A stretch of DNA of 33,269 nt from Mesoaciditoga lauensis cd-1655R = DSM 25116 (GTDB lineage: Bacteria > Thermotogota > Thermotogae > Mesoaciditogales > Mesoaciditogaceae): positions 1-33,269 of the forward strand of contig NZ_JQJI01000027.1 of NCBI RefSeq assembly GCF_000745455.1, in the 5' to 3' direction. The translations under genes were made by a program, and so were the position numbers. This document shows, piece by piece, positions 4,367 to 5,902 of the stretch (positions are counted from its first letter, which is position 1; every line of letters begins with the position of its first letter). The notes under the pieces were generated by a model. That model made no database searches. It worked only from the letters and a program-made list of their open reading frames with translations, and was not told the origin of the DNA.

Positions 4367-5902
4367 ATGAATTTGATAATGGGCTTTCTTCATCTTTTGA
4401 ATGCCTTTACAGTTCAGATAATTCAAACAGGAGGATATTTCGGGATCTTCTTTGCAATGGCTCTTGAAAGTCTCATGGTGCCGATCCCAAGTGAAGTTAT
4501 TTTGCCTTTCGGAGGTTACCTTGCCTCTTCAGGTAGTCTTAGCGTTTTTGGAGTTGTACTTGCCGGTACGATAGGCGGAACAGTGGGCTCATTAGGGCTT
4601 TATTACCTCGCTACTTTTTTGGGAAATGCTTTTGTCAAAAAATGGGGAAAGTACATATTCGTTTCTGAAGAACATATTAAAATAACGAGTGAATGGTTTA
4701 GAAAGTACGGTAATTTCGCCATTTTTACCACAAGAGTGTTACCCATAGTAAGGGGTATTATTTCCATACCGGCCGGAATAGCAAGAATGAACGTTTTGGC
4801 ATTTACAGTTTACACTTTTTTGGGTACTTTTGTTTGGTCTTTGATATTGACTTATTTTGGATTTCAGCTTGGATTGTCAAATATGAGCACACATTTAATA
4901 TGGATTGTGACGATCGTTATTGCGGGTTTAGCTATCGCCATCTACTTCCTTTCACATGTTGCAAGAAAACATTCCGAATTTTTCGGTGTCTTAATAAACG
5001 TATCTTTGTGGCTTGTATTGATTTTTTTCATATCTTATTCTCTCTACGAATCTTATGCCCCCATTAAAACATCCGACTTGAACTACCTAAATGTGGTAAA
5101 AATACAGAAAGAAATGAGTGAAAATGATTTTTCATTTTACGTTGTCGGAGACACTTTTCAAAATCCTGAATCGCTGAGAAAAATTCCAGCCTTTCAAGAT
5201 TCAGCAAAAAAATCTTTTATCGTGAGTTTGGGAAATATGGTTTATTCTGGAGATAAAGCTAAGTACAGAATACTTCTTCATGAGATAAAGAAAGTCAAAG
5301 TTCCTTTTGTGGCAATTCCGGGGCCTTTGGATTTGAGCGATCAGGGATACCAAAACTATTACAACATATTTGGGGATTACGATTACGCTTTTGATATCAA
5401 AGGCGTACGGTTTATAATGCTCAACGATGCGAACGGAAGGATTTCTTCCGAACAGTTCAATTGGCTGACAAATGAACTGTCCGAAATTCCCAGTTCTTCA
5501 ACGGTAATTGTGACGTTGAGTGTGCCACCATCATGGGTTAATTCCAATGACACCCTTGATGAAAAGACATCCAACAAACTTAGGAACATCTTGAATTCTC
5601 ATCCAACACTGCTTTTTTCAATGGGAAAAAACGCAACCATTTTATCCACTCCCATCAAAAGTGCAATCACAGATGAAAATGATTATCTTCGCGTTCAAAT
5701 AAACGGCAAGGGACCAAGCATAAAAATTGAAAAAGTCAGAATGAAAAAAGGTGACACTCTCATGGAAGAAATTTCAGTGTACTTGTATTCCGTTTGGGTT
5801 TTAGAATGGCCGGTGTTAGGTATAATAGGTATGGCCATACTTATAACATGGTTTTTCTTCAAGCATTACAAAGTGTTTGTCAAAATTGAAAAGAGAAAAT
5901 GA
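4367..5902 (+). CDS. DedA-family membrane protein fused to inactive metallophosphoesterase-like domain
   Basis: 511 residues. Residues 1-200 are a DedA/VTT-type membrane domain: ESLMVPIPSEVILPFGGYLA near 30-50 and TRVLPIVRGIISIPAGIARM near 122-142. DedA proteins act in membrane lipid transport and envelope homeostasis. Two more spans (about 180-230) follow, then a domain with the layout of calcineurin-like phosphoesterases (about 255-455), then a last span near the C-terminus. The domain keeps the shared scaffold (YDYAFDIKGVRFIMLNDANG and QFNWL) but the ligand motifs are altered: GDTF262-264 for DxH, GN290 for GD, GPLD319-322 for GNHD, SVPP385-388 for HxPP, and SMGKNA418-423 for GHxH. Only D262 remains. 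ATG follows AAAGGA by 7 bases. I infer a non-catalytic, extracytoplasmic domain. Confidence 0.85.
   Translation: MNLIMGFLHLLNAFTVQIIQTGGYFGIFFAMALESLMVPIPSEVILPFGGYLASSGSLSVFGVVLAGTIGGTVGSLGLYYLATFLGNAFVKKWGKYIFVSEEHIKITSEWFRKYGNFAIFTTRVLPIVRGIISIPAGIARMNVLAFTVYTFLGTFVWSLILTYFGFQLGLSNMSTHLIWIVTIVIAGLAIAIYFLSHVARKHSEFFGVLINVSLWLVLIFFISYSLYESYAPIKTSDLNYLNVVKIQKEMSENDFSFYVVGDTFQNPESLRKIPAFQDSAKKSFIVSLGNMVYSGDKAKYRILLHEIKKVKVPFVAIPGPLDLSDQGYQNYYNIFGDYDYAFDIKGVRFIMLNDANGRISSEQFNWLTNELSEIPSSSTVIVTLSVPPSWVNSNDTLDEKTSNKLRNILNSHPTLLFSMGKNATILSTPIKSAITDENDYLRVQINGKGPSIKIEKVRMKKGDTLMEEISVYLYSVWVLEWPVLGIIGMAILITWFFFKHYKVFVKIEKRK

What the first reader, a model, noticed from the sequence alone, without database searches (positions are those of the whole stretch)
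4367..5902. DedA transporter-like protein fused to a phosphoesterase domain stripped of its metal ligands
Residues 255-455 keep the fold landmarks of calcineurin-like phosphoesterases, but four of the five ligand motifs are fully replaced: GN for GD, GPLD for GNHD, SVPP for HxPP and GKNA for GHxH. The first retains only its Asp (GDTF, D262). Loss at nearly every motif with an intact open frame suggests a retained non-catalytic function, such as sensing or binding a phospholipid headgroup next to a DedA lipid-transport domain.
Basis: partly seen in the sequence, partly recalled or inferred. Interest (0 to 1): 0.68.

Follow-up and report, generated by a model that had tools for sequence, protein, structure and literature searches.

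The report
Lipid flippase with dead phosphatase domain
In one family of heat-loving bacteria, a membrane protein that probably recycles the lipid carrier used to build the cell wall is fused to a phosphatase domain that lost its catalytic metal site in every species but was kept and re-conserved, so the dead domain very likely has a new, non-enzymatic job next to the lipid flippase.

Summary
Window 4367-5902 encodes 511 aa: a DedA/VTT domain nearest to the undecaprenyl-phosphate (Und-P) transporter UptA, a TM helix, a calcineurin-like phosphoesterase (MPE) domain and a C-terminal TM helix. The MPE fold is confirmed (AF2 pLDDT 87; GpdQ TM 0.70) and its metal site is gone.

The same fusion occurs in 9 of 10 Mesoaciditogaceae genomes (10 proteins, one clade) and in no other Thermotogota searched. 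The bridging Asp of motif II is Asn in all ten, and the GNHD Asn and His and the first GHxH His are always lost. The nearest relatives are stand-alone membrane MPEs with complete sites. The fused domain is not decaying: dN/dS is low (0.07-0.25), and motif loops I-III remain its best conserved parts, with a new fusion-specific sequence.

Context supports 'lipid-carrier recycling' over 'phospholipid'. In several relatives the gene lies between rseP and ispG in an isoprenoid operon. The family lacks UppP/BacA, and the window's lineage also lacks the flippase PopT. In Marinitoga-type genomes the stand-alone MPE is in an operon with PopT and BacA.

Best reading: an Und-P flippase with an extracytoplasmic pseudo-phosphatase used for binding, gating or scaffolding. 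What that domain binds is untested.

The parts
4367..5902 (+). Fusion gene: DedA (UptA-like) + TM + pseudo-metallophosphoesterase + TM, 511 aa
   Evidence: full-length homologues at 45-64% identity in 8 other genomes of the family
4367..4966 (+). DedA/VTT lipid-transport domain, residues 1-200; invariant E34, E43, R123, R129 at the positions matching the essential acidic and basic residues of COG0586 DedAs
   Evidence: Pfam PF09335 E 2e-21; NCBIfam UptA model E 7.5e-44 but below the equivalog cut-off; invariant columns; residue roles from PMC10127716; correspondence by motif and spacing is inference
4979..5035 (+). Transmembrane helix (residues 205-223) linking DedA to the MPE; basic on its N side, so the MPE is predicted extracytoplasmic
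   Evidence: hydropathy and charge count on all 10 fusions
5114..5737 (+). Pseudo-metallophosphoesterase domain, residues 250-457, calcineurin-like fold
   Evidence: AF2 model pLDDT 86.7; Foldseek top hits calcineurin-like
5147..5158 (+). Motif I, GDTF (261-264); D262 kept here and in one other member, Asn in eight
5231..5254 (+). Motif II, GNMVYSGD (289-296) in place of GDMVFDG; N290 invariant in all 10 fusions; best conserved loop of the domain
5321..5332 (+). Motif III, GPLD (319-322) in place of GNHD; metal-ligand Asn and catalytic His lost in all 10
5519..5530 (+). Motif IV, SVPP (385-388) in place of HVP; His kept in 5 of 10 fusions
5624..5635 (+). Motif V, GKNA (420-423) in place of GHIH; first His lost in all 10, second kept in 3
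5792..5848 (+). C-terminal transmembrane helix (476-494) with basic tail, homologous to the C-terminal helix of the stand-alone MPEs

Best explanation
The protein is a DedA-type (COG0586, UptA-like) flippase that returns the cell-wall lipid carrier undecaprenyl phosphate from the outer to the inner leaflet. It carries on its outer face a pseudo-phosphatase domain. That domain descends from a membrane-anchored metallophosphoesterase associated with carrier-lipid recycling. After a single fusion in the ancestor of Mesoaciditogaceae it lost its di-metal site but kept, and re-fixed, loops I-III of the former active site. Most likely it now binds something without hydrolysing it: the lipid-phosphate head group or a partner such as the PAP2 Und-PP phosphatase, capturing or handing over Und-P to the DedA core, or gating it. 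Shown here: fusion, fold, ligand loss in all members, selection, operon context, UppP/PopT absence. Inferred: transport activity, substrate, membrane side, and what the dead domain does.
For: DedA half: nearest curated model is UptA (E 7.5e-44); E34, E43, R123, R129 are invariant in ten proteins and correspond to residues essential in COG0586 Und-P flippases (PMC10127716). Ligand loss: 10 of 10 fusions lack the bridging Asp, the GNHD Asn and His, and the first GHxH His; 12 of 12 stand-alone relatives have all of them. One clade, 100/100. Selection: dN/dS of the MPE part is 0.07-0.25 in the pairs where dS could be estimated, 0.07 at dS about 0.8, like an active stand-alone pair (0.066 at dS 1.2). 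Loops I, II and III have pairwise conservation 0.71, 0.77, 0.62 against 0.49 for the domain; only 10 of 207 circular shifts match the motif set; T263, F264, N290, S294 are invariant and fusion-specific. Context: rseP-FUSION-ispG, with dxr before rseP in three of four genomes. The only VTT domain found in the genome is this one, with no BacA and no PF04018/PopT, while PAP2 and UppS are present. In four Marinitoga-type records the stand-alone MPE sits directly before PopT and BacA, so this MPE family is tied to two unrelated Und-P flippase families. Both flanking helices fit the positive-inside rule with the MPE outside.
Against: No transport or binding data exist. The DedA half scores below the UptA equivalog cut-off (150 against 250 bits). 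The MPE part evolves about 1.3-4 times faster than the DedA part in the pairs with dS estimates, and motif loops IV-V are relaxed. The gene is missing from one congener, G001 (88% complete), at both syntenic sites. BacA loss and fusion gain are each a single phylogenetic event, so their co-occurrence is not independent statistical support. The full-length model is poor over DedA (pLDDT about 58), so the interface could not be examined.
Confidence: 0.62

Rival explanations
1. The MPE domain is a neutral, decaying passenger on a working DedA protein; it persists only because losing it cleanly is rare.
For: Ligand loss is graded: HxP His kept in 5 of 10, second GHxH His in 3, first Asp in 2. The MPE part evolves faster than DedA. 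One congener lacks the gene.
Against: All ten copies are full-length open frames at down to 45% identity. dN/dS is 0.07-0.25, and at similar dS about equal to an active stand-alone pair. Loops I-III are the best conserved parts, with new invariant residues.
Confidence: 0.08
2. The domain is a structural anchor or protein-docking module, like the phosphatase-fold Plasmodium membrane anchor GAP50, with no lipid contact: it holds a PAP2 phosphatase, a penicillin-binding protein or an envelope protease next to the flippase.
For: GAP50 (3tgh) is among the top fold matches (rank 12, TM 0.64). Fixed aromatic and small residues (T263, F264, Y293, S294) would suit a contact surface. In the window the next gene, 19 bases downstream, is a subtilase with a lipoprotein-type signal sequence.
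Against: Conservation is centred on former active-site loops I-III. No partner gene is conserved across all fusion loci.
Confidence: 0.22
3. The domain is still an enzyme with a changed or single-metal site, using residues such as D296, D262 and the remaining His.
For: D296 and K299 are invariant; some members keep one or two His.
Against: No member keeps more than 2 of the 6 metal-ligand positions scored, the bridging Asp and catalytic His are lost in all, and which ligands remain varies.
Confidence: 0.06
4. The DedA half moves ordinary phospholipids, and the dead domain senses phospholipid head groups.
For: DedA relatives in another subfamily are thought to be phospholipid flippases or scramblases (PMC10127716).
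Against: The acidic and basic residue pattern is that of COG0586 Und-P flippases; the subfamily thought to move phospholipids lacks it. Isoprenoid operon and UppP/PopT context.
Confidence: 0.1

Closest known systems
UptA / COG0586 DedA undecaprenyl-phosphate flippases (B. subtilis UptA, E. coli YqjA/YghB)
   Same: VTT domain, conserved acidic pair and arginine pair, best-matching curated model
   Different: about 300 extra residues with an extracytoplasmic pseudo-phosphatase; below the equivalog cut-off; COG0586 described as absent from Thermotogota
DedA-PAP2 fusions (COG0586 + PF01569)
   Same: Und-P flippase fused to a phosphatase-type domain; one occurs in the same phylum (G047, L022)
   Different: PAP2 is an unrelated fold, presumed active; here the partner is a calcineurin-type domain without its metal site
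Stand-alone membrane metallophosphoesterases of Thermotogota (N-TM, MPE, C-TM)
   Same: nearest sequence relatives (28-38% identity) with the same flanking helices
   Different: complete metal site, no DedA domain; in Marinitoga-type genomes in an operon with PopT and BacA
UpsH (YpbG) of B. subtilis
   Same: a metallophosphoesterase acting in Und-P recovery
   Different: COG1408, cytoplasmic, catalytic histidines required (PMC11898649); not a DedA fusion
GAP50, phosphatase-fold membrane anchor of Plasmodium
   Same: calcineurin-type fold; called an anchor rather than an enzyme in its PDB title (3tgh)
   Different: eukaryotic, no transporter domain

Membership tests
COG0586 / UptA-type DedA flippase | PF09335 VTT domain | tested here: met
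   E 2.1e-21, above cut-off
COG0586 / UptA-type DedA flippase | conserved acidic residues of re-entrant helix 1 and two arginines of re-entrant helix 2 | tested here: met
   E34, E43, R123, R129 invariant in 10 proteins; matched to YghB E39/D51/R130/R136 by motif and spacing, with a 3-residue difference in the first pair
COG0586 / UptA-type DedA flippase | NCBIfam UptA equivalog cut-off | tested here: not met
   150 bits against 250; so it is UptA-like, not filed as UptA
COG0586 / UptA-type DedA flippase | Und-P transport | not testable with these tools
   needs complementation or binding assay
Calcineurin-like phosphoesterase superfamily (fold) | calcineurin-type alpha/beta phosphoesterase fold | tested here: met
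   Foldseek GpdQ TM 0.70, E 1e-9
Catalytic metallophosphoesterase | GD / GD / GNH(D/E) / H / GHxH metal ligands | tested here: not met
   motif II Asp, GNHD Asn and His, first GHxH His lost in 10 of 10
DedA-PAP2 fusion | PAP2 domain | tested here: not met
   no PAP2 in the protein; PAP2 encoded separately

The most novel reading that the evidence does not exclude
Mesoaciditogaceae have rebuilt carrier-lipid recycling: UppP was lost, PopT is being lost, and a single-chain flippase with a built-in pseudo-phosphatase took over, the dead domain acting as an outer-leaflet receptor that recognises Und-P (or Und-PP) and gates its import.
Probability: 0.3. Interest if true: 0.78.

Novelty: new variant of a known kind. 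Interest (0 to 1): 0.58.

Why it matters
How Und-P flippases recognise and gate their lipid is an open question. A naturally fused, catalytically dead phosphatase domain predicted to lie at the outer face of one, conserved across a bacterial family, gives a ready-made handle: the domain can be removed, swapped for its intact stand-alone relative or purified alone for lipid binding. It also revises the statement that Thermotogota lack COG0586 DedAs, and links an uncharacterised membrane phosphoesterase family to carrier-lipid recycling through an operon with PopT and UppP.

Tried and rejected
Decay of this single copy: rejected, ten of ten fusions lack the site. Wrong superfamily: rejected by fold search. 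A stand-alone active orthologue still present in the family: none found at E below 1e-12; a different secreted MPE with intact motifs exists (L029). Two-component and glycosyltransferase genes near the MPE in G053, G014 and G003 looked like a shared neighbourhood, but the similarities between these genomes are generic (23-45% identity), so not used. Fusions outside the family: none among 103 Thermotogota genomes, the 24 loci of the genome-contig scan, 6 further genomes or the 9 held genomes of one other phylum, which have separate DedA and, in two, MPE genes; other phyla were not surveyed. PDB by sequence: purple acid phosphatases, weak. Full-length model too poor over DedA to dock the two parts. 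Literature: no paper in the held library on a DedA-metallophosphoesterase fusion.

Full report
WHAT IS THERE. Window 4367-5902 is one intact gene of 511 codons. Residues 1-200 are a DedA/VTT domain (Pfam E 2.1e-21) whose nearest curated model is the undecaprenyl-phosphate transporter UptA (E 7.5e-44, 150 bits, below the 250-bit equivalog cut-off). A hydrophobic helix (205-223) leads into a calcineurin-like phosphoesterase (MPE) domain (about 250-457), then a second helix (476-494) and a basic tail. Charge on all ten homologues is more positive before the first helix and after the second, which predicts the MPE domain outside the cytoplasmic membrane. The Pfam MPE hit of the window copy is sub-threshold, so the fold was tested: an AlphaFold2 model of the domain (pLDDT 86.7) matches calcineurin-type enzymes, first GpdQ (TM 0.70, E 9.9e-10), then purple acid phosphatases; GAP50, a phosphatase-fold membrane anchor of Plasmodium, is rank 12.

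LIGAND LOSS IS A PROPERTY OF THE FAMILY, NOT OF THIS COPY. The fusion is present full-length in 9 of 10 genomes of family f1, which named records identify as Mesoaciditogaceae (Mesoaciditoga, Athalassotoga), with two copies in G003, and in none of the other 93 Thermotogota genomes searched. In those, the best matches are stand-alone proteins with one helix, the MPE and one helix, at 27-38% identity, with intact GD / GD / GNH(D/E) / H / GHxH motifs in all 12 aligned. In the ten fused proteins the motif II Asp is always Asn, and the GNHD Asn and His and the first GHxH His are always lost; the first Asp survives in 2, the HxP His in 5, and the second GHxH His in 3. The fused proteins also lack about 14 residues (in the GGAGAELxGxxxxHYFYH stretch) near the C-terminal end of the domain. 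Fused and stand-alone MPEs separate with 100/100 support: one fusion and one loss of catalysis at or before the family ancestor, with further erosion later, is the simplest account.

NOT DECAY. NG86 dN/dS of the MPE part is 0.07 (G007/G009), 0.17 (G002/G005), 0.15 (G006/G004) and 0.07-0.25 over the other pairs with an estimate; for DedA 0.02-0.12. Many dS values are near saturation, so only the closest pairs carry weight. An active stand-alone pair gives 0.066. Motif loops I, II and III keep pairwise conservation of 0.71, 0.77 and 0.62 against a domain mean of 0.49; the five motif loops together are matched by 10 of 207 circular shifts. Loops IV and V are relaxed (0.46, 0.39). T263, F264, N290 and S294 are invariant in fusions and differ from the stand-alone residues. 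So half of the former active site was re-specialised rather than abandoned.

WHICH LIPID. Todor et al. 2023 (PMC10127716) assign Und-P flippase function to COG0586 DedAs, with essential acidic residues and two arginines; the matching E34, E43, R123, R129 are invariant here. They report fusions to PAP2 and rhodanese, with no MPE fusion in the text read, describe COG0586 as absent from Thermotogota (16 of 17 genomes), and note that it is rarer where the other flippase, DUF368/PopT, is present. Here VTT occurs in 9 of 10 f1 genomes and over the cut-off only once elsewhere (G047, a DedA-PAP2 fusion). BacA/UppP is absent from 10 of 10 f1 and present in 50 of 51 others. PopT is not found in G000, G001, G003, G004, G006, G008 and G009; it is present in three of four Athalassotoga-type genomes (genus g2) and in 49 of 51 others. 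PAP2 is present in all ten f1 and the carrier synthase UppS in all ten. So in the window's genome this fusion is the only member of either known Und-P flippase family, and PAP2 the only known type of Und-PP phosphatase, that was found. These co-occurrences reflect few evolutionary events and are context, not statistics.

GENE NEIGHBOURHOOD. In G003 (second copy), G004, G006 and G008 the fusion lies directly between rseP (M50 protease) and ispG, in all but G006 with dxr directly upstream of rseP, then panC and a small exporter gene. That is an isoprenoid-synthesis operon. In G000 and G001 rseP abuts ispG with no fusion between them, so the window copy, which groups with the first G003 copy (100/99), is best read as a relocated paralogue. 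In G001 (88% complete) it is also missing at the position syntenic with the window. In the window a subtilase with a lipoprotein-like signal sequence starts 19 bases downstream behind a good ribosome site, so the two are probably co-transcribed. In Marinitoga-type genomes (G053, G074, G075, M. lauensis L056) the stand-alone MPE precedes PopT and BacA; in G074 and G075 it carries stop codons. The same MPE family is therefore tied to two unrelated Und-P flippases, by operon and by fusion. B. subtilis UpsH shows that an MPE can release Und-P from Und-PP-linked polymers, though in the cytoplasm and in another MPE family (PMC11898649).

READING. Most likely an Und-P flippase with an outer-face pseudo-phosphatase that binds without cutting. 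Shown: anatomy, fold, loss, selection, context. Inferred: transport, substrate, side of the membrane, and whether the dead domain touches lipid or protein. Closest kinds are UptA and DedA-PAP2 fusions; the pseudo-MPE fusion appears undescribed in the held library, hence a new variant of a known kind.

Noticed in passing
It may have helped relocate the gene; nature unknown.
   Followed up: partly
L074:7274-10883: Operon MPE - PopT (PF04018) - second MPE - BacA in G053; the MPE-PopT-BacA order also in G074, G075 and Marinitoga lauensis, with stop codons in the MPE of G074 and G075.
   Followed up: partly
family f1 genomes: All ten Mesoaciditogaceae genomes lack BacA/UppP, unlike 50 of 51 other Thermotogota; G001 shows no BacA, PopT or DedA, which would leave it without any known Und-P flippase unless the assembly is incomplete.
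   Followed up: partly
L022 (G047): A DedA-PAP2 fusion, the only other DedA over the cut-off found in Thermotogota, next to a second PAP2 gene.
   Followed up: no
L095:9236-10780, L096, L097: In Athalassotoga-type genomes a 5'-nucleotidase-type phosphoesterase with a C-terminal 5_nucleotid_C domain lies next to or one gene downstream of the fusion.
   Followed up: no
L122, L126-L129: The nine held genomes of a small phylum (a record labelled Aquificota, S016_37) carry separate DedA genes 34-40% identical to the fusion's DedA half, the closest found, and two also carry the stand-alone MPE.
   Followed up: no
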